DNA of 64,000 nucleotides from positions 1,612,001-1,676,000 of the forward strand of contig OY282447.1 of assembly GCA_958296165.1 (NCBI GenBank), in the 5' to 3' direction. The stretch comes from an uncultured Pseudomonadales bacterium (GTDB taxonomy: Bacteria; Pseudomonadota; Gammaproteobacteria; Pseudomonadales; Azotimanducaceae). The notes beneath the pieces were generated by a model. The model had not been told where the DNA came from. It was given only the letters and a program-made list of their open reading frames with translations, and searched no databases. Made by a program: the position numbers and the translations under genes. Of this stretch, positions 3-48,814 are shown in pieces (the first letter of the stretch is position 1; each line of letters begins with the position of its first letter).

Positions 3-1169
3 GCTCAGAACTACGCCGCGCTTCGCTCGCTCGCGACCGCCGGCATACAGCAGAACCACATGACCCTACACGCCCGCAGCGTCGCTTCGGCGGCCGGCGT
101 GCCGGACGAACTGTTCGACGAAGTAGTGGACGCGCTCATCGAGAGCGGCGACATCAAGGTTTGGAAGGCGGAAGAACTCGCACGGCGCTTTTCGCGTGTA
201 CGGCAGGGCCGCGCACAGCATGTGACGGACGGCGAATCCGAACCGCGCAGCTCCGCCTGCGGCAAGGTCATTCTGCTTGGCGAGCATGCCGTGGTGTACG
301 GCCGCTCCGCCTTGGCGGCGCCGATTCCGCTGGCTGTGGAGGCGCGCGTTGTGGACGCCGCCCAAGACGTACACCTGCTAATCCCGCGTTGGGGCGTGGA
401 ACAGCGCGTACCGCCGCTTGGGGAACACCCGGCCGGCGTTGCCGGCATCCTGGCGCTGCTGCTGAGACGTTTGGATCTCGCCCATCGCGCCATGGCCATC
501 GAAGTGTTCCCGAACGTCCCAAGGGCCATGGGCTTGGGGGGTTCAGCGGCGCTGGCCGTCAGCGTCATCCGTGCCTTGGATACGCATTTCGATTTGCGGC
601 TCGACGCCGCCGCCATCAACAACTTCGCGTTCGAGTGCGAACAAGCCGCGCACGGCACGCCCTCCGGCGTGGACAACACCCTCGCCACCTACGGCGCCAC
701 CATGCTCTACAACGCCGGGCACGGCGACACGGCGGCGCGGTTCACCGAACTCTCGATCGGCCGCCCGCTGCCGCTGGTGGTTGGCATTTCCGGCAAGGAG
801 AGCCTCACCGCAACCAGCGTTGCCCGCGTCGCGGCCGCATGGCGGCGCAACCAGCGCCGCTACGAAGGCATCTTCGATCAGATCGACGCCCTCACCCGGG
901 CCGCCGCCGACGCCGTGCGGGACGGCGAATTGGCGGAGCTCGGCGAACTGATGAATCTCTGCCACGGCTACCTCAACGCCTTGCAGGTATCCACGCGCGA
1001 ACTGGAGGAGCTCGCCGACATCGCTCGCCGCCACGGCGCCGCCGGAGCGAAGCTCACAGGCGGCGGCTGCGGCGGCTCGGTAGTGGCTCTGTGCCCGCAA
1101 GGGACGGCGGACGCCGCTCAAGCGATGCGCGAGGCAGGCTACGCGGCGCTCACGTTCGAGATACGCTAG
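3..1169 (+). CDS. HMG-CoA reductase (C-terminal part) fused to mevalonate kinase, 5' partial
   Basis: The gene enters from the left edge with no stop. Visible residues 1-65 match the C-terminus of bacterial (class II-like) HMG-CoA reductase: AALRSLATAGIQQ, then NHMTLHARS, the block holding the catalytic His (the usual Gly before it is Asn here). After a linker of about 20 residues the same frame continues into a GHMP kinase: GKVILLGEHAVVYG near residue 87, the ATP loop PRAMGLGGSAA near 173 and the C-terminal GGGCGGS near 353, as in mevalonate kinase. The kinase part is about 300 residues, normal for a bacterial mevalonate kinase. Together they would turn HMG-CoA into mevalonate and then phosphomevalonate. 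An in-frame GTG at 222 could also start the kinase alone. The stop shares a CTAG with the convergent PhyH gene. Confidence 0.85.
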   Translation, partial: AQNYAALRSLATAGIQQNHMTLHARSVASAAGVPDELFDEVVDALIESGDIKVWKAEELARRFSRVRQGRAQHVTDGESEPRSSACGKVILLGEHAVVYGRSALAAPIPLAVEARVVDAAQDVHLLIPRWGVEQRVPPLGEHPAGVAGILALLLRRLDLAHRAMAIEVFPNVPRAMGLGGSAALAVSVIRALDTHFDLRLDAAAINNFAFECEQAAHGTPSGVDNTLATYGATMLYNAGHGDTAARFTELSIGRPLPLVVGISGKESLTATSVARVAAAWRRNQRRYEGIFDQIDALTRAAADAVRDGELAELGELMNLCHGYLNALQVSTRELEELADIARRHGAAGAKLTGGGCGGSVVALCPQGTADAAQAMREAGYAALTFEIR

Positions 1170-11396: not shown

Positions 11397-14248
<2,852 letters not shown>

Positions 14249-16252
14249 ATGCAATCGCCCTGCCGTTCAAGAGTGTCGCTGCCCCGGCAGGCGGTGCGGC
14301 CCGGCGCCCGTTTTCTAGACCACGCCTCGCGCTGCTTCGCGCCAGTCGCGTTGGCGCTCTTCGCGGCAGTCGGCCTAGGCGTTCTCGACGACTACGGCGT
14401 GTCCACGGACGAAGAGACGCAACGAACTCTCGGTCGGCAGGCTACGGACTATGCTCTGGGCATTTCCGAGAGGCTGCTCGCCAATAGCGACCGACATTAC
14501 GGCGTTGCGTTCGAGATTCCGCTCTACGTCGCCGAGCATGTTCTCGCGCTTGAGGACATGCGCCATGTCCATCTTGTGCGGCATTTCCTGACGCATCTTT
14601 TCTTCCTCGCCGGCGGCTTTGTTCTGCTACCTGCTGACCCACAGGCTGTTCGGCAGCCGGCTGCTGGCGGCGTTCGCGCTGCTCGTCTTCGTGCTGCATC
14701 CGCGGCTGTATGCGCACTCCTTCTTCAACACCAGAGACATCCCCTTCACCGCCATGTTCATGGCGGCGCTGTTCCTGATCCACCGAGCGTTCCGGCTCGA
14801 CACCGTCCGCGCTTTCGTACTCGGCGGCGTCGGCGTCGGCCTGCTCGCCGGCATCCGCACACCTGGCCTGATGCTGGCGGCCGCCGTGGTAGCGATGCGG
14901 GCCCTCGATCTGTTCCTCGAACGGCCCGAGCGCCGCAATCACGTCGTGCTTGCCGGCGGCGCGTTCCTCGCCGCCTTGTCTGTCACGCTCTACGCCATAT
15001 CGCCCCTACTTCTGGAGCGATCCGCTGGGTCGCATCGTGGAGTCGCTCGCTCTACTCGCCCACGTCGACCACAATTATTAGGAGCTCTTTCAAGGCGAGC
15101 TCTTCCCCGCGGCCGGGGTGCCGGCCGGCTACTTCCCGACATGGTTCACGATTACCACACCGTTGGCGACGCTGCTGTTCGGCGTCGTCGGCGCCGTCGC
15201 GGTGGCTTGGCGCAGCCTGACGCGACCGAGCGACGTGCTTGGCAACACCGACTTGCGGTTCGGCGCTTTGCTCGTCGCGAGCTGTGTGCTGCCGGCGGTC
15301 GCCGTGGCCGTCTTGGGATCGACGCTCTACAACGGCTGGCGGCATCTGTATTTCGTGTACGCGCCCTTCGCCATGCTGGCGGTCTTCGGTCTGCACTGGC
15401 TGAAATCCGCAGGCGTCCGCGTCGCCTGGCCGGCAGCCGCCGGCTTGGCGGCCATCGGCTTGGCCGCGACCGTTGTCGAGATGGTGCGCATCCACCCGCA
15501 TCAGAACGTGTACTTCAACGCTCGTAGATCGCAGCACGCCCGGCCATCTTCCTTCCCGCTATGAAATGGACTATTGGCGCACGTGGGCTCGGGAAGCCAT
15601 CGAGCATCTGCTGGAACGCTCGCCGACGCAGCCCATCCACATAGGCTCAAGACCAGGCGGGTTTCTTGAACGGAACCGATCCATCCTGCCGCGATTGGAT
15701 CGCGAACGGGTGTTCCTCGGTGGAGAGAGGGCGGACTACGCAATCTCCATGGATGCCAGAAGCCACGATCTTAGGCCGGGATGGCAGACCGGCTTGTTTC
15801 CGCCTTCGATCTGGCAGCGGAAGATATACGGCAGCGCAATCGTGACGGCTGCGGCGCTGGATCTCTCGAAGGTGGACGCGGCGACCGCCGATCGCTACCG
15901 CGAGGCGTATCGGAGCACAACGGCCGGCAGTCCGCTGATCGAGGCGGAATACGACATCTATCGGCACGACCGGCGGCTCTACGCCAAGCATCCTTGCGAT
16001 GCCAGAGCTGCGGCGACGGGCTTCACTCTGCACGTCACGCCCGCTTCCGCCGAAGACCTGCCGGCCCGCTTCCGGCACCTGGGCTTCGTGCCCACGCCCT
16101 TCTTCTACGCCGTGCGCGTAGACCGCAGGTGCCTGGCTTCGATCCGCCTGCCGCCCTACCCGATCTCCCGCTTCCGTACCGGCCAGTACGAGGAAGGACC
16201 TACTTGGTGGGCCGAGCGCGTTCCGGTTTGGCAGGTCGAATACGACTTCTGA
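14249..16252 (+). pseudogene. membrane glycosyltransferase-like (GT-C/family 39-type) gene, multiply disrupted
   Basis: Four frame fragments form one protein of roughly 660 residues. The N-terminus from ATG 14249 reads YGVSTDEETQRTLGRQATDY and breaks near 14618-14621 (one extra base); the frame then gives CYLLTHRLFGSRLLAAFALL and several membrane helices up to about 15005, where a second shift occurs. The next frame carries an in-frame TAG at 15079-15081, between HVDHNY and ELFQGELFPA, most simply a TGG-to-TAG change, and runs on to HPHQNVYFNA. A third shift near 15520 leads to the soluble tail (LPSRYEMDYWRTWAREAIEH) ending at 16252. Polytopic order and the HPHQ-VYFN-DYW block fit dolichyl-phosphate-mannose-type transferases. 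Three shifts plus a nonsense codon point to real decay. Confidence 0.8.
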
Positions 16253-16272
16253 GGCTGCACCTCGCGGGCGCA

Positions 16273-17346
16273 TCAGGCAGCCTCGAACGCGCCTTGTTTC
16301 ACGTGAAACATGCGGCTCGCGGCCGCAAGCGATCGCGCTTGTTGCGAAGCAGGATGTGCAGACGTAGCGATGGTCTGACAGTTCATATCTCGTAGCAGCT
16401 GATAGAAGCGCTCGCTATGGTCACTGTCGAGCTCGGCACCAATGTCGTCAATGAGAAACAAGGACTGCTTGCCATCGGCCATCAGGTCTTGGGCTTGCGC
16501 TAGCCGCAACGCGCTGGCCACCATCTTCCCCTGACCACGCGACAGTGTCGTCGCCGCGGCCTCCGTACCGCACCGTATGACCACGTCGGCGCGATGGGGC
16601 CCACTCCGCGTCATTCCGGTTCGCGTATCTTGTTCGATCTCGTCCTGCAAGCTCTCGGCTAGATTGCCGTCGGGCCAGCCAGGAAAGTAGCTCAGCGATA
16701 CCGAGAAGTCCGCGCCGAGCACTCTGAGAGACGCTCCTATCGCCGACTCCACGCGCTGGAAGTAGCTCTTTCGCCCTTCAGCGACAGCCGCACCGATCTC
16801 AGCGACTTGGTCCGTCCAAGTCCGCAACGTTCCGAGCTCGCCAGAGCGCAGTACGGCATTGCGGTGCCGGAGCGCGCGAAGATAGGCCCGGAGTCGAACC
16901 GCATGGTCATGTTTCACGTGAAACGTGCCCCAATCCAACCACTGTCTGCGACCGGCCGGGCCACCGAATACCAACTCGGACAGGTCCGGCAGCAATAGCT
17001 GAATCGGCAGCAACGCCGCGACCTCCGACGATTGCCGAACGGCATGGCCATCGCGCCGCAATTCGATCCGTCCGTCGCCTTCGCGAACATACGACAGGCG
17101 TACCGTGCCCGTTCGCACATCCCTACACGCGGCGCCAACCGCCATTCGTTCCTGCCCGTGTCGGAGCAGCCCCCTCGTGCGGCTGGTGCGGAAAGACCGG
17201 CCTCGTATCAATAGGTGGATTGCTTCGAGCAAGGCCGTTTTGCCAGCCCCGTTGGGGCCGACAAGCAGGTTGAGACCAGGCTCCAAGTCTAGGCTGGCAG
17301 ACCCGACATTGCGGACGTTCTGTACATCAAGACGTTCGACGACCAC
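16273..17346 (-). CDS. recF: DNA replication and repair protein RecF
   Basis: SMC-like ATPase that helps load RecA at gaps. 357 residues from a GTG start, typical length. Walker A is LLVGPNGAGKTALLEAIHLL (about 28-47), the signature block is TLSRGQGKMVASALRLAQA and Walker B is LFLIDDIGAELDS. It is 20 bp downstream of dnaN, the standard dnaA-dnaN-recF order. Two centromere (parS) sequences are embedded in the reading frame and appear as the residues FHVK twice, once mid-protein (GTFHVKHDH) and once at the C-terminus (RMFHVKQ). Confidence 0.96.
   Translation of the reverse strand: MVVERLDVQNVRNVGSASLDLEPGLNLLVGPNGAGKTALLEAIHLLIRGRSFRTSRTRGLLRHGQERMAVGAACRDVRTGTVRLSYVREGDGRIELRRDGHAVRQSSEVAALLPIQLLLPDLSELVFGGPAGRRQWLDWGTFHVKHDHAVRLRAYLRALRHRNAVLRSGELGTLRTWTDQVAEIGAAVAEGRKSYFQRVESAIGASLRVLGADFSVSLSYFPGWPDGNLAESLQDEIEQDTRTGMTRSGPHRADVVIRCGTEAAATTLSRGQGKMVASALRLAQAQDLMADGKQSLFLIDDIGAELDSDHSERFYQLLRDMNCQTIATSAHPASQQARSLAAASRMFHVKQGAFEAA
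16295..16310. promoter_or_regulatory. parS centromere site (perfect)
   Basis: TGTTTCACGTGAAACA, a perfect 16-bp palindrome identical to the canonical chromosomal ParB-binding site. It lies within the recF 3' end and is about 11 kb from the parAB genes of this window. Confidence 0.95.
16910..16925. promoter_or_regulatory. parS centromere site (15 of 16)
   Basis: TGTTTCACGTGAAACG matches canonical parS at 15 of 16 positions; only the last base differs. It lies inside recF, 615 bp from the perfect site, so the two form a parS cluster close to the origin. Confidence 0.9.
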
Positions 17347-17366
17347 CCGGCAAGAATCACGTCATC

Positions 17367-18506
17367 TCAGCGGCGCAGGGGCATCACCAAATACAACGAA
17401 TCCTCCGCACCCGGGCCTTCCATCACCGCAATATTGTTGGCCTCCGGCATGGAGAACTTGATCGACTCCGTCTCCAACGCAGCGAGCACATCTTGCAGGT
17501 AGCGAACGTTGAAGCCTATCTCCATGGGCTTGCCGTCGTATTCCACAGAGACCACTTCCTCAGCCTCTTCCTGTTCCGGATTGGTGGCGCGGATCGTCAT
17601 TTGGTCGCCATCGAGCTCCAGCCGCACATCTTGGGACTTCTCGTTGGACAGGATTGCCGCACGATGCAGCGCTTGGCGCACGGACTCTCTGTCGCCGACT
17701 ATGGAATGGTCGGTATTGCGTGGAACAAGGCGATCCACATCGGGAAACTGACCGTCCACGAGCTTTGTAGTGAACGTGTATTCGCCCTGCGTGGCGCACA
17801 GCGACTTGGTCCCGAGCACCAGGTGAACATCCGCATCGCTGTCGGCAATGAGCCGCTCCAAGTCCAGCACGCTCTTGCGCGGCACGATTACTCGCAGCTG
17901 ATTGACGCCCTTGGCCCCCGTGCCGTCAAGAGTACACATCGCCATTCTGTGACCATCCGAGGCCGCCGCCCGGAAGCTGGCGGCGGCAACCTCCAAGAGC
18001 ATCCCGTTCAGGAAATACCGCACGTCGCCATTGGCCATGGCAAACTTAGTGCGGTCGAACAGTCGCCGCAGGTCCGCGTGCGGCAGGTCGACCTCAATGC
18101 CTTCCGGCTCGGTCGCTGCGTCGTCCTCGCCCTCCAAGAGCGGCCGTTCGGTAGGGAAATCCACAGCGGGAATGGTCGCCAAAGCGAATCGGCTACGACC
18201 GCTGCGAACGATTGCTCGGTTCTCCTCCATCGCGACATTCACCGTCGCCAGCTCCGGCAACGACTGCCAAATGTCGGCAAGCTTGTGCGCCGGCACAGTG
18301 ACGGCACCCGGCTGCTCCACTTCCACGCCTTCGGTGAGTCGCGCCACGATCTCCACTTCCAAATCCGTGCCGCGTATCGTCAAACCGTCGGCGTCCGCCG
18401 CCACGTACAGATTCGACAACACCGGCAGTGTGGGCCGGCGTTCGACCACTCCAGTCACTACGCGCAACGGCCGCAACAACGTATCGCGGCTAGTTCGGAA
18501 TCGCAT
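17367..18506 (-). CDS. dnaN: DNA polymerase III sliding clamp (beta subunit)
   Basis: Ring-shaped processivity clamp. 379 residues, three-domain length (E. coli 366). Start MRFRTSRDTLLRPLRVVTGV and interior VERRPTLPVLSNLYV are typical of domain I; the LSRA-like region IVPRKSVLDLERL and the C-terminal PGAEDSLYLVMPLRR (the usual ending is VMPMRL/R) close domain III. It lies 37 bp downstream of dnaA and 20 bp upstream of recF, in the conserved order. Confidence 0.97.
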   Translation of the reverse strand: MRFRTSRDTLLRPLRVVTGVVERRPTLPVLSNLYVAADADGLTIRGTDLEVEIVARLTEGVEVEQPGAVTVPAHKLADIWQSLPELATVNVAMEENRAIVRSGRSRFALATIPAVDFPTERPLLEGEDDAATEPEGIEVDLPHADLRRLFDRTKFAMANGDVRYFLNGMLLEVAAASFRAAASDGHRMAMCTLDGTGAKGVNQLRVIVPRKSVLDLERLIADSDADVHLVLGTKSLCATQGEYTFTTKLVDGQFPDVDRLVPRNTDHSIVGDRESVRQALHRAAILSNEKSQDVRLELDGDQMTIRATNPEQEEAEEVVSVEYDGKPMEIGFNVRYLQDVLAALETESIKFSMPEANNIAVMEGPGAEDSLYLVMPLRR

Positions 18507-18543
18507 GGTCTTTAGTCCTTCTCGAGTCGTAACTTGTCGACAG

Positions 18544-20001
18544 CTAGCTGTTCAGCAGCCGCGTGAGGTTTCTATAGTCCTCAGCTATGTCTGTGGTGGT
18601 CTCCCGGAGCTCCGCGACCTTACGACAGGCATACAACACGGTAGTGTGGTCGCGCCCGCCGAATTGCTCACCGATAGCCGGCAACGAGTGATTGGTGAGC
18701 TCCTTGGCGAGGCACATGGCAATTTGACGCGGTCGGGCGATGTTGGTCCGACGCCCTCTGGCAAGCATGTCCGAGTGCTTGATCCGGTAATAGTCCGCTA
18801 CCGTACGCTGGATGTGGTCAATGGTGATCCGCCGAGCGTGGATGGCGAACAGGCCCCGCAAGGCAAGTCGAACTAGCTCCAACGTTACGGGTACACCGTG
18901 GTGCGTCGCGCTGGCTATCACACGCGAGAGCGCACCCTCCAGTTCACGCACATTGGAGCGAATGCGCTCGGCGATGTGGAACGCTACGTCGTCAGGTATG
19001 TCGATGCCAGCGGCCGCGCCCTTGTTTTGCAGGATGGCCACACGCGTTTCTAGCTCCGGCATGTCCAACTCGTGCGGAAAGCCGCCGACGAAGCGTGATT
19101 GCAGGCGCGATTCAAGGCCGTTTATCTCGGTTGGATACCGATCCGACGTAAGCACGACTTGGCTGCCACGCCCCAGCACCGCTTCAAAGACATGGAACAG
19201 CTCCTCTTGGAAGCCCGTCTTCTCGGCGAAGAACTGGATGTCGTCGATCAACAGCACATCAACGGAGCGATAGCGCTGGGTCACTTCTTGGATGGTTTGC
19301 GTACGTATACCGCGCACGATGTCGTTGCCGAAGCGTTCGGAAGGCAAGTACATCACATGCACATTGGTAGCCTTGGACAGCACCTCGTTCCCGACCGCAT
19401 GCATCAGATGTGTCTTTCCCAACCCCACGCTGCCATACAGCAACAGCGGGTTGTATTCGACCTTGGCAGTGCCGTCTTGGCACCTCGCCGCTACATGCAT
19501 CGCGGTTGACTTGGCGATCTCGTTCGACTTGCCCGCGATGAAATTGTCGAACACATAGCTCTCGTTCAATCCGGCTTTGACTGTCCGCGACGAATGCGCT
19601 GCTACAGGCGTAGAACTGCCGCTCGCATTTGCCGCCCAAGCGGCGCCGTTGCTTTCCGCACTCGCCGCGCTTGCCCCCGCTCGAGTCACATGCGGCGCCG
19701 CCCGCAACGGTGCCCCAAGCTCGTGCTCCCACCGGCCGATCACTACTCTTACGCCCCGCACCTCGCTCGCCTCGCCAAAGTTGGCGACAAGCTCTTCGAT
19801 TTGGCGCAAGTAACGGCTCTCTACCTCCTCCTTGACATACCTGTTAGGTGCCAAGAGGAGCAGTTCTCCCTGCTCGGACTCGGCCTGAAGCGGCCTGATC
19901 CAACTGTCGTAATCTCGCGATGGCAATTCCTCGCTTAGAAGCTGTTCGCATCTGTGCCATACGCTTACACCGATGCCCGAACGTGCAACCCTTTTTTCCA
20001 C
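18544..20001 (-). CDS. dnaA: chromosomal replication initiator protein DnaA
   Basis: AAA+ initiator that melts the origin. 485 residues from a GTG start. Domain I reads VWHRCEQLLSEELPSRDYDS and WIRPLQAE, followed by a low-complexity Ala/Ser domain II (about 95-145). Domain III has FIAGKSNEIA, Walker A GSVGLGKTHLMHAVGNE, Walker B VLLIDDIQFF and the arginine-finger region around ESRLQSRF. Domain IV carries the DnaA-box signature GGRDHTTVLYACRKV. The region upstream is the probable oriC, and dnaN follows. Confidence 0.98.
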   Translation of the reverse strand: MEKRVARSGIGVSVWHRCEQLLSEELPSRDYDSWIRPLQAESEQGELLLLAPNRYVKEEVESRYLRQIEELVANFGEASEVRGVRVVIGRWEHELGAPLRAAPHVTRAGASAASAESNGAAWAANASGSSTPVAAHSSRTVKAGLNESYVFDNFIAGKSNEIAKSTAMHVAARCQDGTAKVEYNPLLLYGSVGLGKTHLMHAVGNEVLSKATNVHVMYLPSERFGNDIVRGIRTQTIQEVTQRYRSVDVLLIDDIQFFAEKTGFQEELFHVFEAVLGRGSQVVLTSDRYPTEINGLESRLQSRFVGGFPHELDMPELETRVAILQNKGAAAGIDIPDDVAFHIAERIRSNVRELEGALSRVIASATHHGVPVTLELVRLALRGLFAIHARRITIDHIQRTVADYYRIKHSDMLARGRRTNIARPRQIAMCLAKELTNHSLPAIGEQFGGRDHTTVLYACRKVAELRETTTDIAEDYRNLTRLLNS

Positions 20002-20196
20002 GCTTTCTAGCCCTGCCCCCGCAAAGTACGTTTGTTCGATTTCCGCCGTCGCGGACCACCGAATCCGACAACGACTCGCAACACTCTAGCAAGACTCCGC
20101 ACCGCTATCGGCCACGAATTTTGAGTTTTCTTGCGTTTTCTCAGTAATTCAATCGCTTACAAAAACGAGCGGCAAAGAGCCGAAATTTGGCGTTCC

Positions 20197-20205
20197 TGTG
20201 GATAA
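20197..20205 (-). promoter_or_regulatory. DnaA box
   Basis: TGTGGATAA, the reverse complement of the consensus TTATCCACA, a perfect match beside the AT-rich stretch in the dnaA-rpmH gap. Confidence 0.8.
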
Positions 20206-20407
20206 GCTGTTGGTATTCCCCGCACCCAGTGTGCAAGGATAAAACATCCGCATTCCACCAGACCCCCATACCATCTTCTCAACGACTTGCCCACATGCCG
20301 ACATGTAGGACATTCGCCCTAGTTTCCGTAGGTTATCGCCCCAATCCACAGCATCCTGAGTGCCCTACTACAACAACTAGCATCCTATAGACCATAGGTA
20401 GTAATCG

Positions 20408-20436
20408 TTGACAGCCGCCGGTCGTCCGCTCACAAT
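20408..20436 (+). promoter_or_regulatory. sigma-70-type promoter for rpmH-rnpA
   Basis: A perfect -35 TTGACA (20408-20413), a 17-bp spacer and the -10-like CACAAT (20431-20436). The predicted start near 20443 leaves a leader of about 70 nt before rpmH. Confidence 0.7.
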
Positions 20437-20511
20437 CGCGCACCCTTCCAACACCGCCCCGACACCGCCCGCTTCACGATGCGGCAGGGGCCAAACCAAG
20501 GGGCCTATGCC

Positions 20512-20646
20512 ATGAAGAGGACATACCAGCCTAGCGTTGTGAAGCGCAAGCGGCGGCACGGATTCCGAGCGCGGATGGCCACTAAGGCCGGGCGCAGGGT
20601 GCTGAGTGCCCGACGTGCGAAAGGCCGCAAACGGCTAACGGTGTGA
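20512..20646 (+). CDS. rpmH: 50S ribosomal protein L34
   Basis: A 44-residue, very basic protein of the large ribosomal subunit. [18 protein letters not shown], then [20 protein letters not shown] and the end KRLTV match the family across the full length. It is preceded by a good promoter and followed 33 bp later by rnpA, the near-universal rpmH-rnpA pair. Confidence 0.98.
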
Positions 20647-20679
20647 CGCACCGGCCGGGCGGCGCAGGTTAGGGTTGCA

Positions 20680-21072
20680 ATGCCAAGGCCGCACACGGAG
20701 CGCTTCGGTCGAGGACGACGGCTGCTACTCCGGCGGGAGTTCGACGCCGTGCTTAAGAACCCGCAACTGCGTTTGCGACGTGGGCCTCTTTGGGGCGCGG
20801 TGTGCAGCAACGATCTCGGCATGACTCGGCTGGGTTTGATCGTGGCCAAGAAGGTCCTGCGCAGGGCGGTGGACCGGAACCGGGCGAAGCGCGTGATCAG
20901 AGAGTCGTTCCGGCGACAGAGTTTGCCCGCCCTCGACGTCGTCGTGCGTCTGACCGAGTCTCGGCAAGTGTCTCCCGCTCACGCGGATCGCCTGTTCGCC
21001 GCCTTGGGCGACGTGCTTGCGAGGCGGAGAACAGATGGCTCGCGTGAGAAGGTCGAGACCGCACGTGCTTGA
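20680..21072 (+). CDS. rnpA: ribonuclease P protein component
   Basis: Basic protein cofactor of the RNase P ribozyme, which trims tRNA 5' ends. 130 residues. The hallmark RNR region is intact: [20 protein letters not shown], then IRESFRRQ. The N-terminal central-cleft residues [17 protein letters not shown] are also typical. The 3' end overlaps yidD, as in many bacteria. Confidence 0.96.
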
Positions 21073-21337
21073 AGCGGACCCCGTACCAGCGAGCAGTAGG
21101 GCACGGTTGACGCCGGCGTGTATTCTGCGCAGTGCGCTGGGCGTCTATCGGCGCTACATCAGCCCGGCTATCGGCTGCCATTGCCGCTTCTATCCCACCT
21201 GCTCCCGGTACGCGCTGGTAGCCATCGAACTGCATGGGCCGTGGCGCGGTTCTCTGTTGGCGTTGATGCGGTTGTTGCGCTGCCATCCTCTGCATCCGGG
21301 CGGCGTTGACCCTGTGCCAGAGCCACGATCTTCCTGA
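21035..21337 (+). CDS. yidD: membrane protein insertion efficiency factor YidD
   Basis: Small membrane-associated protein that helps YidC-dependent insertion. The diagnostic core is [20 protein letters not shown] and [13 protein letters not shown], then [14 protein letters not shown] at the end. About 100 residues from ATG 21035, longer at the N-terminus than E. coli YidD (85); a TTG at 21109 would give a near-standard length. It overlaps rnpA by up to 38 bp and its stop overlaps the yidC start. Confidence 0.9.
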
Positions 21338-23055
21338 TGTCCTTGCCGTCCACCGAAATCCAGCGCGTCGTGCTTGTGGTGTTGCTCGGCGTCGTCGGCT
21401 ACCTGTTGGTCTACAACTGGAATCAGGACTACGGCCCGAGTGCGAGCAAGCCTCGCGTTTCGCCAACGTCTGCCGCCGAAGACGCTGTGCCAGCCGCGCC
21501 GATGCCCGTAGCCGAGACAGGGCCGGAGGCAGCGGACGACATTCCACGCGAGGAACTCTCCGGTAGCGCCGAGCCGCCGGGCTTCGCCGGCGAAGACGTG
21601 GACATGGCGACTTCATCCAGAATTGTATCGGTGCGAACGCCGACGCTGGCCGTGTGGATCGATCGCTTGGGCGGTGACATCGTCCGTTTGGAGCTGCCGC
21701 GGTACCCACGCGAGTTGGGAAGCGAGGAAGCAGTGCGTCTGCTCGATCGCGGCCCTAGCCGCACCTACATCGCGCAGAGCGGCCTGATAGGTCGCGACGG
21801 TCTAGACAAGAATAGCGCGTCTCGACCTCTGTACGAGATTGCCAATCGAGATCCGAACGGCTACTCGCTGCAGGAAGGGGTGCTCGAATTAGCACTGCGC
21901 CACGAAACCGGCGACGTCATCGTAGAGAAGCGCTTCTTGTTCGATGCCGAGAGCTATGTGGTCAGCGTCGAACACAGCATCGACAACCGCACCGCGACGG
22001 AGTTTCGCGCCCGGCTGTTCGCGCAGCTGAAGCGCGATGCCAGCCGCCCCGAGTCAGACGGCTTTGGGATGGGCCCACGCCCTTATGTGGGTGCCGCTTT
22101 CACGACGCCGGATTCGCGCTACGAGAAGATCGATTTCGATGATTTGGACGAAGAGCCGTTTCGCACCGATGTGCGCGGCGGCTGGGCCGCGATGCTGCAG
22201 CACTACTTCCTTGCTGCGTGGGCGGGCGATGCAGACGAAGTGAACGCTTACAACGGCAGGCGGTTAGGCGATGGCAACTACGCCGTGGGCTACATCGCAC
22301 CGGAGTTGGTGGTGCCGGCCGGCGAGCGACGCACCGTTGCTGCCCGCCTCTATGCCGGCCCGAAGATCCAGAAGCAGTTGGAGGAAGTGGCGCCGAACCT
22401 CTACCTCACTGTGGACTATGGGCTGTTGTGGTGGCTCTCGGTGCCTCTGTTCTACGTGCTCGACGCCATCAACTCGGTGGTGGGCAATTGGGGCGTCGCC
22501 ATCATTCTGCTAACCGTGACCGTGAAGATATTGCTCTTCCCGTTGGCATCGGCGGGCTTTCGTTCGATGGCGAGGATGAAGAAGCTGGCGCCGCAGATGA
22601 GCCGTTTGAAGGAGCGCTACGGCAGCGACCGCCAGAAGCTGTCGCAGGAGATGATGGCCTTGTATCGCAAGGAAGGCGCGAATCCGCTCGGCGGCTGCCT
22701 GCCGTTGCTCTTGCAGATGCCCGTGTTCTTTGCGCTGTATTGGGTGCTGTATGAGAGCGTGGAACTGCGCCAAGCGCCTTTCATCTTCTGGATCAAGGAC
22801 TTGGCGGCCCTGGATCCGTGGTTCGTGCTGCCCATTCTCTACGGTGCGTCTTTCTTCGCCATGCAGCTCATGCAGCCGCCGCCACCGGACCCGATGCAGG
22901 CGAAGGTGATGAAGGCGATGCCGATCATCTTCACGGTGTTGTTCATGTTCTTTCCAGCCGGCCTGGTGCTGTATTGGCTGGTGAACAACGTCCTCTCATT
23001 GGCGCAACAGTGGTTCATCACCCGCCAGATCGAAAGGAAGACGCAGCCTGCGTGA
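21337..23055 (+). CDS. yidC: membrane protein insertase YidC
   Basis: Inner-membrane insertase and chaperone, working alone or with Sec. 572 residues. It has an N-terminal membrane anchor (VVLVVLLGVVGYLLVYNW), then the large periplasmic beta domain of Gram-negative YidC (about 90-345), then the conserved five-helix core with YGLLWWLSVPLFYVLDAINS, GCLPLLLQMPVFFALYWVLY and PAGLVLYWLVNNVLSLAQQW. The TGA stop overlaps the GTG start of mnmE. Confidence 0.97.
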   Translation: MSLPSTEIQRVVLVVLLGVVGYLLVYNWNQDYGPSASKPRVSPTSAAEDAVPAAPMPVAETGPEAADDIPREELSGSAEPPGFAGEDVDMATSSRIVSVRTPTLAVWIDRLGGDIVRLELPRYPRELGSEEAVRLLDRGPSRTYIAQSGLIGRDGLDKNSASRPLYEIANRDPNGYSLQEGVLELALRHETGDVIVEKRFLFDAESYVVSVEHSIDNRTATEFRARLFAQLKRDASRPESDGFGMGPRPYVGAAFTTPDSRYEKIDFDDLDEEPFRTDVRGGWAAMLQHYFLAAWAGDADEVNAYNGRRLGDGNYAVGYIAPELVVPAGERRTVAARLYAGPKIQKQLEEVAPNLYLTVDYGLLWWLSVPLFYVLDAINSVVGNWGVAIILLTVTVKILLFPLASAGFRSMARMKKLAPQMSRLKERYGSDRQKLSQEMMALYRKEGANPLGGCLPLLLQMPVFFALYWVLYESVELRQAPFIFWIKDLAALDPWFVLPILYGASFFAMQLMQPPPPDPMQAKVMKAMPIIFTVLFMFFPAGLVLYWLVNNVLSLAQQWFITRQIERKTQPA

Positions 23056-24380
23056 CCAGGCCGCTCCGCGACACCATCGCCGCCATTGCCACACCGCCTG
23101 GGCGTGGCGGCATCGGCATCGTCCGCGTTTCGGGCCCTGCCGCGAGCGACATCGCCCAAGCGGTGATTGGCCGTCTGCCGCTGCCGCGCATGGCCGAGTT
23201 GGCTGACTTCATGGATGGCGATGCAACCGTCGTCGACCGCGGCCTCGCCCTCTATTTCGCCGCTCCGAACTCGTTTACCGGCGAAGACGTGCTTGAATTG
23301 CACGGGCACGGCGGCCCGGTGGTGATGGATCGGTTACTGGAGCGCGTAGGCGGGCTCGGCGCTCGGCTTGCCCGCCCGGGCGAGTTCACCGAGCGAGCGT
23401 TCTTGAATGACAAGATCGATCTCGCCCAAGCCGAAGCGGTTGCCGATCTAATCGATAGCGCTTCCAGACGAGCCGCGCGTTCGGCGATGCGCTCGTTGAC
23501 AGGGGAGTTCTCACAGTGTGTGAGAGCGATCGACAGAGCGCTGCTTGATGTGCGTGTTTATGTGGAAGCGGCCATCGACTTCGCTGAAGAGGACGTCGAC
23601 TTCTTGGCGGAGTCGGACATCACGGATCGGCTGGACGCGCTCACGAACCAGATTGCGGACTTGGAAACGCGATGCCGTCGAGGCCAGGTGCTGCGCGATG
23701 GCTTCGACGTCGTCATCGCCGGTGCGCCCAACGCTGGCAAGTCCAGCCTGTTGAATCGTCTCTTGGCTGAGAATCGCGCCATCGTCACCGATGTGCCCGG
23801 CACCACTCGTGACCTCATCTTCGCCGACATCGAAATCGAAGGCATCCCGGTGCGCCTCACCGACACCGCTGGCTTGCGCGAAGGTGGCGACACGGTGGAA
23901 ACGATCGGCGTCGAACGGGCCAAGGCCGCGATGGCCAACGCCGATTTGGTCCTCGCAGTCGTCGATGACAGTCTTGCTGTCGGCGCGGTGGTCACGCCTG
24001 GTGAGCATTGCCTGGTCGTACGGAACAAGGTCGACCTCACCGGCCGGACAGCGGGCCAAGGCAAGCGCGGCGAACTGTTCGTTTCCGCCTTGACGGGCGC
24101 TGGTTTGGACGCCCTGCGCGGAGCGATCGTTGCCGCGGCGGTCGGTGCGGTCGGTGCGCCCGACGAGCACACTTTCTTGGCGCGCAAGCGCCACCTCGGT
24201 GCATTGGCGGCAGGGCGGCGCGGCGTTGCGCAAGCACGCTGTCGCGTCGCCGATGGCCAGGGCGATCTCGCCGCCGAGGAATTGCGCCACGCGCAGCACC
24301 GGCTCGGCGAGATCGTAGGTGTTACCAGCGTCGACGACCTGCTCGGCGAGATATTCCGCGGCTTCTGCGTCGGCAAGTAG
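23052..24380 (+). CDS. mnmE: tRNA uridine-5-carboxymethylaminomethyl modification GTPase MnmE
   Basis: With MnmG it modifies wobble U34 of tRNAs. 442 residues from a GTG that overlaps the yidC stop. The folate-binding N-terminal domain starts DTIAAIATPPGRGGIGIVRV. The GTPase motifs are G1 GAPNAGKSSL, G2 near TTRD, G3 DTAGLR and G4 NKVD. The C-terminus FCVGK carries the catalytic Cys (usual form CIGK). mnmG follows after 112 bp, so both halves of the enzyme are neighbours. Confidence 0.97.
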   Translation: MTRPLRDTIAAIATPPGRGGIGIVRVSGPAASDIAQAVIGRLPLPRMAELADFMDGDATVVDRGLALYFAAPNSFTGEDVLELHGHGGPVVMDRLLERVGGLGARLARPGEFTERAFLNDKIDLAQAEAVADLIDSASRRAARSAMRSLTGEFSQCVRAIDRALLDVRVYVEAAIDFAEEDVDFLAESDITDRLDALTNQIADLETRCRRGQVLRDGFDVVIAGAPNAGKSSLLNRLLAENRAIVTDVPGTTRDLIFADIEIEGIPVRLTDTAGLREGGDTVETIGVERAKAAMANADLVLAVVDDSLAVGAVVTPGEHCLVVRNKVDLTGRTAGQGKRGELFVSALTGAGLDALRGAIVAAAVGAVGAPDEHTFLARKRHLGALAAGRRGVAQARCRVADGQGDLAAEELRHAQHRLGEIVGVTSVDDLLGEIFRGFCVGK

Positions 24381-24453
24381 TGCGGGTCGTAGGTGATGGG
24401 TATCGTAGGTACTGTATAAGTACCCAAGCCAGGCCCTTGCGATGCCACAGGCG

Positions 24454-24459
24454 TATAAT
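24454..24459 (+). promoter_or_regulatory. -10 element upstream of mnmG
   Basis: A perfect TATAAT 34 bp before the mnmG start. No good -35 lies at the right distance; a nearby inverted repeat GGTAC-TGTATAA-GTACC (24409-24425) could be an operator or a weak terminator of mnmE. Confidence 0.4.
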
Positions 24460-24492
24460 CGTCAATCGTTCGCCAACTGGCCGCCAAGCGCC

Positions 24493-26385
24493 ATGATCCA
24501 TCCGCTACGCTTCGACGTCATCGTCATCGGCGGTGGCCATGCCGGTGCCGAGGCCGCGCTCGCAGCCGCTCGCATCGGCGCCAACACGCTGCTGCTCACG
24601 CAGAGCATCGAAACCATTGGCCAGATGTCCTGCAATCCGGCCATCGGCGGTATCGGCAAATCCCACTTGGTGCGTGAGATCGACGCCTTGGGCGGCGCAA
24701 TGGCCTTGGCGACCGATCGCGCTGGCATCCAATTTCGCACGCTGAACGCACGCAAGGGGCCGGCGGTTCGCGCCACCCGTGCGCAAGCGGATCGCGTGCT
24801 CTACCGCAATGCCATGCGTCGCATCGTGGAGAACCAGGCCAACCTGACGATGTTTCAGCAGTCCGTCGTCGACCTGCATGTCGTGGACGGCCGTGTGCGT
24901 GGCGTGGACACGCAGATGGGCCTGCGCTTCGATGCCGATCGCGTAGTGCTCACCACCGGCACGTTCCTGGGCGGCCGCATGCACATGGGCCTCACCAACC
25001 AGCCCGGCGGCCGTGCCGGCGATGCCCCTTCCAACGCCCTGGCCGAACGATTGCGGGCGCTGCCGCTGCGCGTGGAGCGACTGAAGACGGGCACGCCGCC
25101 GCGCCTGGACGGGCGCAGCGTGGACTTCAGCGCAATGGACACGCAACCCGGTGACGTCCCCCGCCCCACGATGTCGTATCTATCCGCGCCGAACGAGCAT
25201 CCGCGTCAAGTGCCGTGTCATATCACGCACACCAACGCCGCCACGCACGACATCATTCGCGCCGGCCTCGAACGGTCGCCGCTGTACGCCGGCGTCATCG
25301 AAGGCGTCGGGCCGCGCTATTGCCCCTCCATTGAAGACAAAGTGGTGCGATTCGCGGCTCGCGACCAGCATCAGATATTCGTTGAGCCAGAAGGCTTGGA
25401 AACCCACGAGCTCTACCCAAACGGCATCTCCACGAGCCTTCCGTTCGACGTGCAGCTGGCCGCGGTGCGCAGTATCCGTGGCTTCGAGAACGCCCACATC
25501 ACGCGGCCCGGCTACGCCATCGAGTACGACTTCTTCGATCCGCGCGACTTGGCGCCGACGTTGGAAACACGCTGCATCGGCGGGCTTTACTTCGCCGGCC
25601 AGATCAACGGCACCACCGGCTACGAAGAGGCCGCGGCGCAAGGCCTGCTGGCGGGAGCGAATGCGGCGCTGGCCGCCGCCGGCAAGGACTCATTGCGTTT
25701 GGAGCGCTACGACGCCTATATCGGCGTGTTGGTAGACGATTTGATTACGCACGGCGTCACGGAGCCATACCGCATGTTCACTAGCCGCGCCGAATACCGG
25801 CTGCGGCTGCGCCAAGACAATGCCGATCTGCGTCTGACGGCCAAGGGGTGGGCGCTCGGTTTGGTGGACGACGAGCGCTGGCGGGCATTCTCGGCTCGCA
25901 AGAGCGACATCGAGAGCGGCGCGGCGGCAATGAAAGGCATGATGGTGTCGCCAGGCAGCGACTTGGCGAAGGCTATCGAAGCTGCTGCCGGCGAGAGGAT
26001 CGGGAGCCCCGCCTCGCTCTACGAACTGCTGAGGCGGCCGGCGATCGACGCTGCCGTGATCGACACTGCGCTCGCCAAAGTCGATGCGGCGCAAGTGGAC
26101 GGAGCAGTGCTGGCGCAGCTGGAGATCGAAGCTCGTTACGAGGGCTACATTGCCCGGCAAGATGACGAGATCGCCCGTCTCAAGGTTCACGAAAGCATGC
26201 ATCTTGCGGCCGATTTCAACTACGCAGCGATCGCCGGCCTGTCCAACGAGATCAAGGAGAAGCTCGGCGCGCGACTGCCCGCAACCATCGCTGAGGCGGC
26301 GCGCGTGCCAGGCGTCACTCCAGCGGCCCTGTCGTTGCTGGTCGTCTACGCCAAACGCGATGCCGCCGAGCGCCAAACCGCCTGA
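24493..26385 (+). CDS. mnmG: tRNA uridine-5-carboxymethylaminomethyl modification FAD enzyme MnmG
   Basis: 630 residues (E. coli 629). The FAD-binding start is [20 protein letters not shown], and signature blocks follow: [69 protein letters not shown] and [20 protein letters not shown]. The C-terminal MnmE-interacting helical domain is complete. I chose ATG 24493 over the upstream in-frame start because it aligns with the family. The end overlaps rsmG by 26 bp. Confidence 0.98.
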
Positions 26386-26965
26386 CGGCGCGTTGGTGCG
26401 CTTGCTGGAGGGGCTTGACGTCGACGAGCGCCAAGTGGCCGCGAAACTGGACGCCTTCGAAGCGATCCTGCGCCGCTGGAGCGCCCGCTACAACTTGGTT
26501 TCCCGTCGTGACGCGAAGCGACTACGCACGCGCCATGTGCTGGATAGTCTTGCCCTCTTGCCCTGGTGGTCGGGAACGCTCGCCGATGTGGGTTCCGGGG
26601 CCGGTTTTCCAGGCGTACCGCTGGCCGTCGCTCGCCCAGCGGCGCGGGTGGTGCTCGTTGAGCGCAGCGAGCGCAAGGGTCTCTTTCTGCGCCATGTGGC
26701 AATGGAGCTCCGACTGAGCAATGTTGAGGTGGTGATTGCCGATGCGTCCCGCTATCGCCCGGCGACCCTGTTCGACACCGTCGCTGTGCGTGCGGTGGCG
26801 CAGCCGCCCATCGCGTGGCGTTTGGCCCGGCCCCTGCTTGGCGCGGCCGGCAGCGCGATCTTCCAGTCTCACGAGCCGCTCGCGCCAACGGTGTTCGAGA
26901 ACGGCACCGTGCGCGCCAGCAAACGCGCTGGCGTTGGATGGATCACCGTGGTCGGAGCGGCCTGA
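26360..26965 (+). CDS. rsmG: 16S rRNA (guanine527-N7)-methyltransferase RsmG
   Basis: 201 residues, usual length. The SAM-binding motif is [20 protein letters not shown], followed by [20 protein letters not shown]; the N-terminal block [20 protein letters not shown] is also typical. The start at ATG 26360 overlaps mnmG, and the stop overlaps the parA start in TGATG, so mnmG-rsmG-parA-parB is one tightly coupled unit as in many gammaproteobacteria. Confidence 0.95.
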
Positions 26966-27753
26966 TGGCGCGCCGTATTGCGGTTGCGAACCAGAAAGGC
27001 GGCGTTGGCAAGACCACGACCGCCGTCAATCTGGCCGCCTCGCTGGCAGCGGACGGTGCCAGGACGCTGCTGGTGGACATGGATCCTCAAGGCAACGCCA
27101 CGATGGGTTCCGGCATCGACAAGAACGCTCTTGCCGGCAACAGCGCCGAAGGGTGGTTGGTGGACGGCGCGGCTTTCGAGGCCGTGGCGCGGCGCTCGCC
27201 GGCGGACTTCGCGCTCGTACCCGCAAATGGCGACCTGACGGCGGCGGAAGTGGCCCTGTTCAGTGCTGGCGACCGCTCCACGCGCTTGCGTTCCCGTTTG
27301 GCGGCGTTGGACGCAGATTTCGATTACGTGCTCGTTGACTGCCCGCCTTCGCTCAATTTGTTGACGGTGAACGCCCTGATGGCGGCGCACGGCGTGCTGA
27401 TCCCGATGCAGTGCGAGTATTATTCGCTGGAAGGCTTGACCGCCCTGCTGCTCACCATCCGCGGCGTCCGCCAGCGCGGCAATCCTACGCTCGCCATCGA
27501 GGGCATCCTGCGCACCATGTACGACCCGCGCAATCGCTTGAGCCGCGACGTTTCGCGGCAGCTGTTGCAGCACTTCGGCGCACAGGTGTACCGCACCATT
27601 GTTCCGCGCAACGTCAAACTGGCCGAGGCGCCCAGCCACGGCCTGCCGGCGATTCGATACGACCCGCGCTGCCGTGGCGCACGCGCCTACCGAGCCTTGG
27701 CAGCCGAGGTCGCGCGCCGCGCCGAACGCATGGAAAACGGGGCAGGGAGGTAA
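26965..27753 (+). CDS. parA: chromosome partitioning ATPase ParA (Soj)
   Basis: 262 residues. Deviant Walker A is NQKGGVGKTTTAVNLAASLA, Walker A' DMDPQGNATMGSG and Walker B LVDCPPSLNLLTVNALMAA. The small chromosomal type without an N-terminal DNA-binding domain. It starts in the TGATG overlap with rsmG and is followed 3 bp later by parB. ParA drives ParB-parS complexes apart after replication; two parS sites are in this window. Confidence 0.97.
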   Translation: MARRIAVANQKGGVGKTTTAVNLAASLAADGARTLLVDMDPQGNATMGSGIDKNALAGNSAEGWLVDGAAFEAVARRSPADFALVPANGDLTAAEVALFSAGDRSTRLRSRLAALDADFDYVLVDCPPSLNLLTVNALMAAHGVLIPMQCEYYSLEGLTALLLTIRGVRQRGNPTLAIEGILRTMYDPRNRLSRDVSRQLLQHFGAQVYRTIVPRNVKLAEAPSHGLPAIRYDPRCRGARAYRALAAEVARRAERMENGAGR

Positions 27754-27756
27754 CTA

Positions 27757-28620
27757 GTGGCTCGAGGCGGCCTAGGCAAGGGTCTCGACGCGCTGTTGCC
27801 GGAGCCGGCGCATGGTGCCGAAGAGCCGACGCCCGCCAGCATCGCGGTCGACCTTTTGTATCGAGGCGCGCAGCAGCCGCGCCGACGCATCCGCGCAGAG
27901 GGCATTGAGGAACTCGCCCAGTCCATCCGCGCCCAGGGCGTTATCGAACCCATCATCGTGAGGCCGCGAGCCGCTGGCGGCTATGAAATCATCGCTGGCG
28001 AGCGACGCTGGCGAGCGGCGCAAAGAGCCGGTCTTGCAACGGTGCCGGCGGTGATACGCGATGTCGACGACCGCCAGGCCATCGCCATGGCCCTCATCGA
28101 GAACATCCAGCGCGAAGACCTCAATCCGATCGAGGAGGCACAGGCGCTGCAACGCCTGCTCGATGAACAGGCGCTGAAACACGAGGAGCTCGCCGAGGCC
28201 GTGGGCAAATCCCGCACCGCCGTCACCAACCTGCTGCGCCTCCTGAAACTCGCACCCGGCGTGCAAGATCTGCTAACGGAGAGCGAGTTGGAAATGGGCC
28301 ACGCCAGAGCCTTGCTGCCTTTGCCGACGGAGGAACAAGAGCCAACCGCACGGCGCGTGATCGCCCGTGGTTTGTCCGTCCGACAGACGGAAGCGCTAGT
28401 GAAGCAGCGATTGAGCGGTGCGCCGGCCGCGCAGGGGCGGCACGACCCGGATACTCGGCGGCTAGAGCGGACCTTGAGCGACCATCTCGGCGCACGCACG
28501 TCGATAGCCAGTGCCAAGGGCGGCAAGGGCCGCATCGTCATTCGCTATTCCAGCCTCGTCGAGCTCGACGGCGTGCTCGAACGGCTCGGCGTTGCAGACG
28601 GCCGAGCGAGTGGCGAGTAG
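27757..28620 (+). CDS. parB: chromosome partitioning protein ParB (Spo0J)
   Basis: 287 residues from a GTG. The N-terminus GGLGKGLDALLPE is the ParA-interaction region. The CTP-binding ParB/Srx domain contains GYEIIAGERRWRAAQRAGL and IALIENIQREDLNPIEEAQA-like blocks. The helix-turn-helix is LAEAVGKSRTAVTNLLRLLK, and a C-terminal dimerisation domain follows (GKGRIVIRYSSLVELDGVLE). Its target sequences are the parS sites inside recF. Confidence 0.97.
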   Translation: MARGGLGKGLDALLPEPAHGAEEPTPASIAVDLLYRGAQQPRRRIRAEGIEELAQSIRAQGVIEPIIVRPRAAGGYEIIAGERRWRAAQRAGLATVPAVIRDVDDRQAIAMALIENIQREDLNPIEEAQALQRLLDEQALKHEELAEAVGKSRTAVTNLLRLLKLAPGVQDLLTESELEMGHARALLPLPTEEQEPTARRVIARGLSVRQTEALVKQRLSGAPAAQGRHDPDTRRLERTLSDHLGARTSIASAKGGKGRIVIRYSSLVELDGVLERLGVADGRASGE

Positions 28621-45776: not shown

Positions 45777-46427
45777 TTATTGGACAGGTTGCAGGCGCTC
45801 TGCGATGCCGCTTGCCGCCAGGAAACTGCCGGTGCGCGTGCCGGCACCTCGTGCCGCAACGGCCTTCAGTTCCTGCACCGTGTCTACGTCCAGTCCGAAA
45901 GCCTGCCTGCGTACAACGCGCGCCTTGATGCCAGCGCGGGCCGCCGAGGCGATGTGGGGCTTGAAGCTCCTGCCGTCGAACAGGTACTCGAAGGCGTTTG
46001 GCGGCGAGGAGGCGGCAGCATTGGTGCCGATGTCGTTCACGTCCGGCACCAGCGTAACGCGCTCGTGCCCGTGCAGCACTGCGGCCACGTCGGCCGGTTG
46101 AATAAGCGGCACGTCGCCCGGTACGAACAGAGTGCCAGAGGCGCCGCGCCTGGCCACATAGTCGCTCGCTTCGGCAACGGCGCCGGAGAGGTCGCTCGCG
46201 GTTTCTGGGAACACCTCGGCGCCAAACTCGTCGGCGAGCGCGGCGGCGGCGCTATCGCGCGATGCCAGCACGACCCCGCCCAGCGCCGGAGCGCTCGCCA
46301 GCGTGGCCAACACGTCGCGCATCATCGCCAGCACGAGCCCTTCGCGTTCGGCTTCGGACAGCACGGCCGCCAAGCGTCGTTTCGCGCCGACGGCGCCTTT
46401 GAACGGCAGCAGCGCCCAGATGCTCAC
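45777..46427 (-). CDS. cofC: 2-phospho-L-lactate (or PEP) guanylyltransferase CofC
   Basis: Activates the phospho-acid side chain of F420 with GTP. 216 residues from a GTG overlapping the cofD stop in GTGA. A compact nucleotidyltransferase fold: WALLPFKGAVGAKRRLAAVL (nucleotide loop with the Lys/Arg cluster), GTLFVPGDVPLIQPADVAAV (metal-binding Asp) and VTLVPDVNDIGTNAAASSPP. Which substrate it prefers, phospholactate, phosphoenolpyruvate or phosphoglycerate, cannot be told. It is the last gene of the npdG-cofE-cofD-cofC operon. Confidence 0.9.
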   Translation of the reverse strand: MSIWALLPFKGAVGAKRRLAAVLSEAEREGLVLAMMRDVLATLASAPALGGVVLASRDSAAAALADEFGAEVFPETASDLSGAVAEASDYVARRGASGTLFVPGDVPLIQPADVAAVLHGHERVTLVPDVNDIGTNAAASSPPNAFEYLFDGRSFKPHIASAARAGIKARVVRRQAFGLDVDTVQELKAVAARGAGTRTGSFLAASGIAERLQPVQ

Positions 46428-48779: not shown

Positions 48780-48814
48780 GCGGTGCGCCCCTCGGTTTGG
48801 CTGGATGGCGGCGC

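What the first reader, a model, noticed from the sequence alone, without database searches (positions are those of the whole stretch)
3..1169. In-frame fusion of HMG-CoA reductase to mevalonate kinase
One uninterrupted frame carries the C-terminal block of HMG-CoA reductase (IQQNHMTLHARS) and, after a linker of about 20 residues, a complete mevalonate kinase. Two consecutive mevalonate-pathway enzymes on one chain is not an architecture I know as standard in bacteria. The residue before the catalytic His is Asn rather than Gly.
Basis: partly seen in the sequence, partly recalled or inferred. Interest (0 to 1): 0.7.

Follow-up and report, generated by a model that had tools for sequence, protein, structure and literature searches.

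The report
Fused HMG-CoA reductase and mevalonate kinase
Some bacteria carry two consecutive enzymes of the mevalonate (isoprenoid) pathway as one long protein; the fusion is real, seems to have arisen once and been passed between distant groups, and in the bacterium studied here it goes with loss of the usual bacterial pathway.

Summary
Window 3-1169 is the last 388 residues of a 760-residue open frame (its start lies 1,114 bases left of the window): a class II HMG-CoA reductase, a variable linker of about 25 residues, and a mevalonate kinase. It is no assembly error: the fusion recurs in 28 of 37 genomes of the same family, 25 full length, in 37 of the 80 best loci of a genome scan and in 5 of 229 genomes across the class. 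Fused reductases are one side of one branch (SH-aLRT 99) though their hosts are labelled as five phyla, so one fusion and horizontal spread is the simplest history. None of the 28 carriers has dxr of the MEP pathway. The puzzle lies upstream: HMG-CoA synthase is not found in 23 of 28 carriers, among them all 16 genomes of the window's genus, so the source of HMG-CoA there is open. Four paper searches aimed at the fusion listed no report of it. Bifunctionality is inferred; nothing was assayed.

The parts
3..179 (+). C-terminal part of the class II HMG-CoA reductase domain (residues 373-431 of 760), with Asn390 (54-56) and the catalytic His391 (57-59); the reductase begins outside the window at G000:C1:1610887
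   Evidence: TIGR00532; alignment to P. mevalonii reductase up to residue 432
180..254 (+). variable linker between the reductase flap and the kinase (residues 432-456); no Met here, one in-frame GTG at 222-224
   Evidence: 13 of 43 parsed linkers hold a Met; low-confidence stretch 444-451 in the model of the homologue L041
255..1169 (+). mevalonate kinase domain (residues 457-760) and stop codon
   Evidence: TIGR00549 225 bits over cut-off 163; GHMP N and C domains; Leishmania major and Staphylococcus aureus mevalonate kinases as nearest solved kinase sequences

Best explanation
It is a bifunctional enzyme of the mevalonate pathway. The N-terminal class II HMG-CoA reductase turns HMG-CoA into mevalonate with two reduced nicotinamides, and the tethered mevalonate kinase phosphorylates the product at once, so an equimolar pair of consecutive enzymes is made from one gene. 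The kinase hangs by a flexible linker on the reductase's C-terminal flap, the part that carries the catalytic His. With the neighbouring phosphomevalonate kinase-like enzyme and decarboxylase and a distant type I isomerase it makes IPP and DMAPP in bacteria without dxr. The fusion probably arose once from adjacent reductase and kinase genes, as still seen unfused in Bacillaceae and Myxococcota, and spread horizontally with its operon. Shown: one frame, both domains, invariant residues, recurrent gene order, absence of dxr, single branch on the trees. Inferred: both activities, direction of flux, any gain from tethering, order of events. In the window's genus the HMG-CoA must come from something other than a recognisable HMG-CoA synthase.
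For: Domain calls over curated cut-offs for both halves; residues recalled as catalytic (Glu91, Lys277, Asp293, His391 of the reductase, lined up with P. mevalonii; Lys460, Ser553, Glu585, Asp596 of the kinase) invariant in 17 fusions. Fusion in 28 of 37 family genomes; none of 21 genomes of other families of the order has a full-length match. dxr in 0 of those 28, in 6 of the 9 non-carriers of the family and in 21 of 21 outside it. PF00368 finds no reductase in those 9 non-carriers. Decarboxylase and phosphomevalonate kinase-like frames upstream on the same strand in 15 of 21 loci and 32 of 37 fused loci. Isomerase over cut-off in own genome. HMGR tree: 57 fused against 43 separate rows need 1 change, SH-aLRT 99; kinase tree: 57 against 9, 1 change, SH-aLRT 88. 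Model of the homologue L041: mean pLDDT 86.6, linker stretch under 50, pTM 0.59; it matches P. mevalonii reductase and L. major mevalonate kinase separately, no chain among the 50 listed covering both.
Against: Nothing was assayed. The phosphomevalonate kinase-like gene scores 81 bits against a cut-off of 166. HMG-CoA synthase is not found in 23 of 28 carriers, so the pathway is incomplete on paper. Of the MEP pathway only dxr was searched. Three family genomes (G018, G026, G031) have neither dxr nor a reductase; one of them, G026, is called 100% complete and has HMG-CoA synthase and isomerase. Three carriers are under 91% complete (G001, G002, G010). Trees are quick ones without bootstrap, and rows were chosen as best hits to the fusion, so unfused near relatives could be under-sampled. 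pTM 0.59 gives no support for a fixed arrangement or channel between the domains.
Confidence: 0.85

Rival explanations
1. The reductase runs in reverse: exogenous mevalonate is taken up, part of it is oxidised to HMG-CoA as in Pseudomonas mevalonii, and the tethered kinase captures the rest for isoprenoids. The lack of HMG-CoA synthase would then be natural.
For: The reductase half scores best against the model named degradative and aligns well with the P. mevalonii and Delftia enzymes; no HMG-CoA synthase found in 23 of 28 carriers; an HMG-CoA lyase over cut-off in own genome and in 12 of 28 carriers.
Against: The 'degradative' label covers class II reductases of either direction (recalled). 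Five carriers have HMG-CoA synthase, and it lies in the flanks of 12 of 37 fused contig loci. No mevalonate transporter was looked for. A cell without MEP pathway would depend on mevalonate from outside.
Confidence: 0.1
2. The frame is a translational fusion on paper only: the kinase is mainly made from an internal start in the linker, or the protein is cleaved, so two ordinary enzymes result.
For: 13 of 43 parsed linkers hold a Met; the window's linker has none but has an in-frame GTG at 222-224; the linker is variable in length and low in model confidence.
Against: 30 of 43 parsed linkers have no Met, so no Met start is conserved; GTG and TTG starts were not counted. The joint stays in frame in all 28 carriers and in the 37 fused contig loci.
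Confidence: 0.05
3. Assembly error or chance frame joining of two genes.
For: None found.
Against: The same joint in 28 of 58 genomes of the relatives search, in 37 of 80 contig loci and in three named isolates of Cryobacterium (L068, L071, L074).
Confidence: 0.005

Closest known systems
Pseudomonas mevalonii class II HMG-CoA reductase (PDB 1qax)
   Same: Reductase half aligns over its whole length, 380 bits; same fold in the model of L041.
   Different: Stand-alone enzyme of mevalonate breakdown (recalled); Gly before the catalytic His; no kinase attached.
Mevalonate kinases of Leishmania major (2hfs), Staphylococcus aureus (2x7i), Methanosarcina mazei (4hac)
   Same: Kinase half matches over 285-300 residues; L. 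major and M. mazei also in fold.
   Different: These are separate chains.
Enterococcus faecalis MvaE (acetoacetyl-CoA thiolase and HMG-CoA reductase on one gene; PMC13001223, passage seen)
   Same: Two enzymes of the mevalonate pathway on one chain, with a class II reductase.
   Different: There the partner is the thiolase two steps upstream; here it is the kinase one step downstream, attached to the reductase's C-terminal flap.
Unfused HMGR and mevalonate kinase genes side by side in Bacillaceae (L077, L079, L082) and Myxococcota (L081, L088, L089, L109)
   Same: Reductase directly followed by mevalonate kinase; in six of these seven loci the decarboxylase follows (L109 ends before it).
   Different: Two frames, and the decarboxylase follows the kinase instead of preceding the reductase.

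Membership tests
Class II HMG-CoA reductase | Match over the curated model along the whole domain | tested here: met
   TIGR00532 389 bits, cut-off 260, profile 16-395 of 395; class I model TIGR00533 38 bits, cut-off 442
Class II HMG-CoA reductase | Catalytic Glu, Lys, Asp, His (identity of residues recalled) | tested here: met
   E91, K277, D293, H391 invariant in 17 fusions
Class II HMG-CoA reductase | Reduces HMG-CoA | not testable with these tools
   needs an assay
Mevalonate kinase (GHMP superfamily) | Match over the curated model and both GHMP domains | tested here: met
   TIGR00549 225 bits, cut-off 163; PF00288 and PF08544 over cut-off
Mevalonate kinase (GHMP superfamily) | Catalytic Lys, Ser, Glu, Asp (recalled) | tested here: met
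   K460, S553, E585, D596 invariant in 17 fusions
Mevalonate kinase (GHMP superfamily) | Phosphorylates mevalonate | not testable with these tools
   needs an assay
Mevalonate pathway in place of MEP pathway | dxr absent | tested here: met
   0 of 28 fusion carriers, own included; other MEP genes not searched
Mevalonate pathway in place of MEP pathway | Diphosphomevalonate decarboxylase and isomerase present in own genome | tested here: met
   TIGR01240 218 bits, cut-off 171; TIGR02150 142 bits, cut-off 106
Mevalonate pathway in place of MEP pathway | Phosphomevalonate kinase | tested here: inconclusive
   Adjacent GHMP kinase, best model TIGR01220 at 81 bits, cut-off 166
Mevalonate pathway in place of MEP pathway | HMG-CoA synthase | tested here: not met
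   No match in own genome with PF01154, P0004 or profile A3; present in 5 of 28 carriers
MvaE-type bifunctional enzymes | Thiolase on the same chain as the reductase | tested here: not met
   Pfam finds only HMG-CoA_red and the two GHMP domains

The most novel reading that the evidence does not exclude
A once-formed, horizontally spread HMGR-mevalonate kinase fusion lets bacteria of this genus run an incomplete-looking mevalonate pathway without HMG-CoA synthase: HMG-CoA made in catabolism (3-methylcrotonyl-CoA carboxylase type routes) or by an unrecognised synthase is drawn off into isoprenoids by the tethered pair.
Probability: 0.3. Interest if true: 0.72.

Novelty: new variant of a known kind. 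Interest (0 to 1): 0.52.

Why it matters
Reduction of HMG-CoA is called the rate-limiting step of the mevalonate pathway (PMC13001223, passage seen), and a natural fusion with the next enzyme is a ready part for isoprenoid engineering and a test case for whether tethering helps flux. Its single branch over hosts labelled as five phyla makes it a marker of how a pathway can move by transfer and stand in for the MEP pathway. The missing HMG-CoA synthase in a single-contig genome repeats a gap noted for most Legionella in a 2026 review (PMC13001223, passage seen) and offers another group in which to test what fills it.

Tried and rejected
Frameshift or misassembly: rejected by recurrence. Asn before the catalytic His as a hallmark or as a sign of a dead reductase: rejected, the position varies Gly/Asn/His among fused enzymes.

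Leucine breakdown as HMG-CoA source: only partly supported. In its favour, G034 has an isovaleryl-CoA dehydrogenase (606 bits to a solved one) and alpha and beta subunits of an acyl-CoA carboxylase side by side, with no HMG-CoA synthase found and no more than a 39-bit match to the HMG-CoA lyase model. The beta subunit's nearest solved sequences are 9tps, named propionyl-CoA carboxylase (794 bits), AccD1 (789) and methylcrotonyl-CoA carboxylase of 3u9r (776), so methylcrotonyl-CoA as substrate is likely, not shown. Own genome has both subunits of a like enzyme. Against it, no isovaleryl-CoA dehydrogenase at E<=1e-120 in 17 of 28 carriers: 15 of 16 genomes of the window's genus, G022 and G028; and carboxylase beta homologues are in 58 of 58 genomes, carriers or not, so the trait does not discriminate. 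I keep it as one candidate only. A second carboxylase-lyase cluster was seen in full in L138; its lyase-like gene has a homologue in all 16 genomes of the genus; whether it yields HMG-CoA is unknown. In own genome only its lyase, GST and beta-subunit genes were seen together in L136.

Plasmid carriage: 0 of 72,556 plasmid records have one place covering 80% of the fusion. A scan of viral contigs with the lyase-like protein gave no confirmed relative and was of no use. The search for Azotimanducaceae with mevalonate was set too loose (either term sufficed; 17,068 papers, the 8 listed without the family name) and says nothing.

Full report
What is there. The window is G000:C1:1612001-1676000 of a 5.07 Mb single-contig genome. 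Frame 3..1169 is open from the window's first bases. Taking the DNA to the left gives one frame of 760 codons, L002:11887-14169, which starts at G000:C1:1610887, 1,114 bases left of the window. Residues 6-396 match the degradative (class II) HMG-CoA reductase model at 389 bits (cut-off 260) and 457-735 the mevalonate kinase model at 225 bits (cut-off 163); Pfam gives HMG-CoA_red, GHMP_kinases_N and GHMP_kinases_C, all over cut-off. The start overlaps the end of a GHMP kinase gene (L002:10944-11912, phosphomevalonate kinase-like, 81 bits against a cut-off of 166), which overlaps a diphosphomevalonate decarboxylase (L002:10004-10951, 218 bits, cut-off 171).

Is it more than one genome's oddity? 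Of 58 genomes searched (own, genus, family, order), 28 carry the fusion: 16 of 16 of the genus (14 full length; G002 and G010 partial), and 12 of 21 other genomes of the family (11 full length; G033 split over two contigs); the three partial frames span the joint. None of 21 genomes of other families of the order has a full-length match. In a sample of 229 genomes of the class, 5 including the own genome have it full length in one frame, and one more (G237) matches from inside the reductase in a frame of 390 aa. Hosts by record title include Gammaproteobacteria, Woeseiaceae, Calditrichota, Acidobacteriota and Planctomycetota MAGs and three named Cryobacterium isolates (L068, L071, L074); single MAG labels such as Nakamurella or Rhodospirillaceae may be wrong. 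One fused record, Candidatus Azophilus (Candidatus Azotimanducaceae), falls among rows of the window's family on the gene tree, which hints at the family but does not name it.

History. On a quick tree of 100 reductase domains (57 fused, 43 separate; the short G033 piece was dropped) the fused rows are one side of a branch with SH-aLRT 99; the kinase domains agree (57 fused, 9 separate, SH-aLRT 88). Rows were chosen by likeness to the fusion, the trees have no bootstrap and the kinase tree has long branches. Fused rows labelled Actinomycetota, Acidobacteriota, Calditrichota and Planctomycetota lie among or beside those of Pseudomonadota, so horizontal transfer after one fusion is the simplest reading. 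Separate, adjacent reductase and kinase genes stand in Bacillaceae and Myxococcota, followed by decarboxylase where the contig goes on. Decarboxylase and phosphomevalonate kinase-like frames lie upstream of the fusion on its strand in 15 of 21 loci of the window's family (not in L027, L033, L036-L039) and in 32 of 37 fused contig loci (L050 and L055 with gaps over 1 kb; not in L041, L046, L056, L058, L063). A family of short proteins lies near the fusion in 24 of 57 fused loci; I named it type I isomerase by eye, and in G034 and G028 the isomerase model hits that place.

Pathway context. dxr, the first committed MEP gene, is in 0 of 28 fusion carriers, in 6 of 9 family members without the fusion and in 21 of 21 genomes of other families. 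None of the 9 non-carriers has any reductase by PF00368; G018, G026 and G031 have neither marker, which I cannot explain except by gaps in draft genomes. The type I isomerase is over cut-off in own genome. So the mevalonate route appears to stand in for the MEP route in these bacteria; no MEP gene other than dxr was searched.

The gap. HMG-CoA synthase is found in 5 of 28 carriers (G019, G020, G024, G027, G030) and in G026, with PF01154 and with the 494-residue synthase of G030 (P0004), a divergent enzyme below every curated synthase cut-off and nearest the solved synthases 5hwo, 5hwp and 5hwq. A profile of 13 such proteins finds nothing better than E=0.009 in any genome of the window's genus and nothing at E<=1 in the own one, a single contig. 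The same synthase lies within the flanks of 12 of 37 fused contig loci, so an ancestral pathway with synthase, later lost or replaced here, is likely. A leucine route into HMG-CoA is known: a review (PMC6832408, passages seen) reports it for trypanosomatids and cites halophilic archaea. G034 fits it (isovaleryl-CoA dehydrogenase and both carboxylase subunits together, no lyase beyond a 39-bit match, no synthase), but 17 of 28 carriers, 15 of them in the window's genus, lack a close isovaleryl-CoA dehydrogenase and carboxylase homologues are in every genome searched. An HMG-CoA lyase over cut-off is in 12 of 28 carriers, own included, and a weaker lyase-like paralogue in all 16 genomes of the genus. 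The source of HMG-CoA is thus open. A 2026 review notes the same gap in most Legionella (PMC13001223, passage seen).

How it should work. The reductase's C-terminal flap carries the catalytic His and closes over the active site (recalled for P. mevalonii). In the model of the homologue L041 (mean pLDDT 86.6, pTM 0.59) three helices (391-443) after the main domain are followed by a stretch with pLDDT under 50 (444-451) and the kinase from 455. So the kinase hangs on the moving flap by a flexible tether; no fixed interface is predicted with confidence. Foldseek matches the two halves separately to P. mevalonii reductase and L. major mevalonate kinase, with no chain among the 50 listed covering both. 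Equimolar expression and quick capture of mevalonate are the likely gains; direct channelling is not shown.

The Asn. Of 58 fused frames 57 matched the motif search: 35 Gly, 19 Asn, 3 His; of 43 separate frames 39 matched, all Gly; the five others were not resolved. Asn and His were seen only among fused enzymes here, as variants in some lineages.

What is in print. Seven paper searches were made. Those aimed at the fusion listed 20 of 44, 20 of 38, 4 of 4 and 1 of 1 papers; no listing reports it. Mevalonate pathway with Cryobacterium gave 0 papers. The one recent review looked into (PMC13001223, passages only) names MvaE, and its passages on fusion name no reductase-kinase fusion. The listed papers were not read, and most subscription papers are not held, so the fusion may be noted elsewhere; I expect genome annotations and domain databases to contain it already (not checked).

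Noticed in passing
window 46427-47905 (-) and 48120-48812 (-): Coenzyme F420 genes cofD (TIGR01819, 285 bits, cut-off 257) and npdG (TIGR01915, 201 bits, cut-off 150), side by side.
   Followed up: partly
window 11397-28620: Block that by eye reads gyrB, recF, dnaA, rnpA, yidC, mnmE, mnmG, parA, parB: a typical replication-origin neighbourhood.
   Followed up: no
G018, G026, G031: Family genomes with neither dxr nor any HMG-CoA reductase; G026, called 100% complete, still has HMG-CoA synthase and isomerase.
   Followed up: partly
L138:3039-9499 (G008): Cluster of HMG-CoA lyase-like protein, GST, 3-methylcrotonyl/geranyl-CoA carboxylase-like beta subunit, biotin carboxylase-type alpha subunit and enoyl-CoA hydratase; the lyase-like gene scores 177 bits, below the HMG-CoA lyase cut-off of 246.
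   Followed up: partly
L068:7417-8897 (Cryobacterium aureum): The HMG-CoA synthase beside the fusion is split into two overlapping frames; sequencing error or real break not decided.
   Followed up: no
L036-L039 (G004, G009, G014, G005): In these genomes of the genus decarboxylase and phosphomevalonate kinase were not found next to the fusion; an isomerase gene lies just upstream instead in G004, G009 and G014, and a piece of one at the contig end in G005.
   Followed up: no
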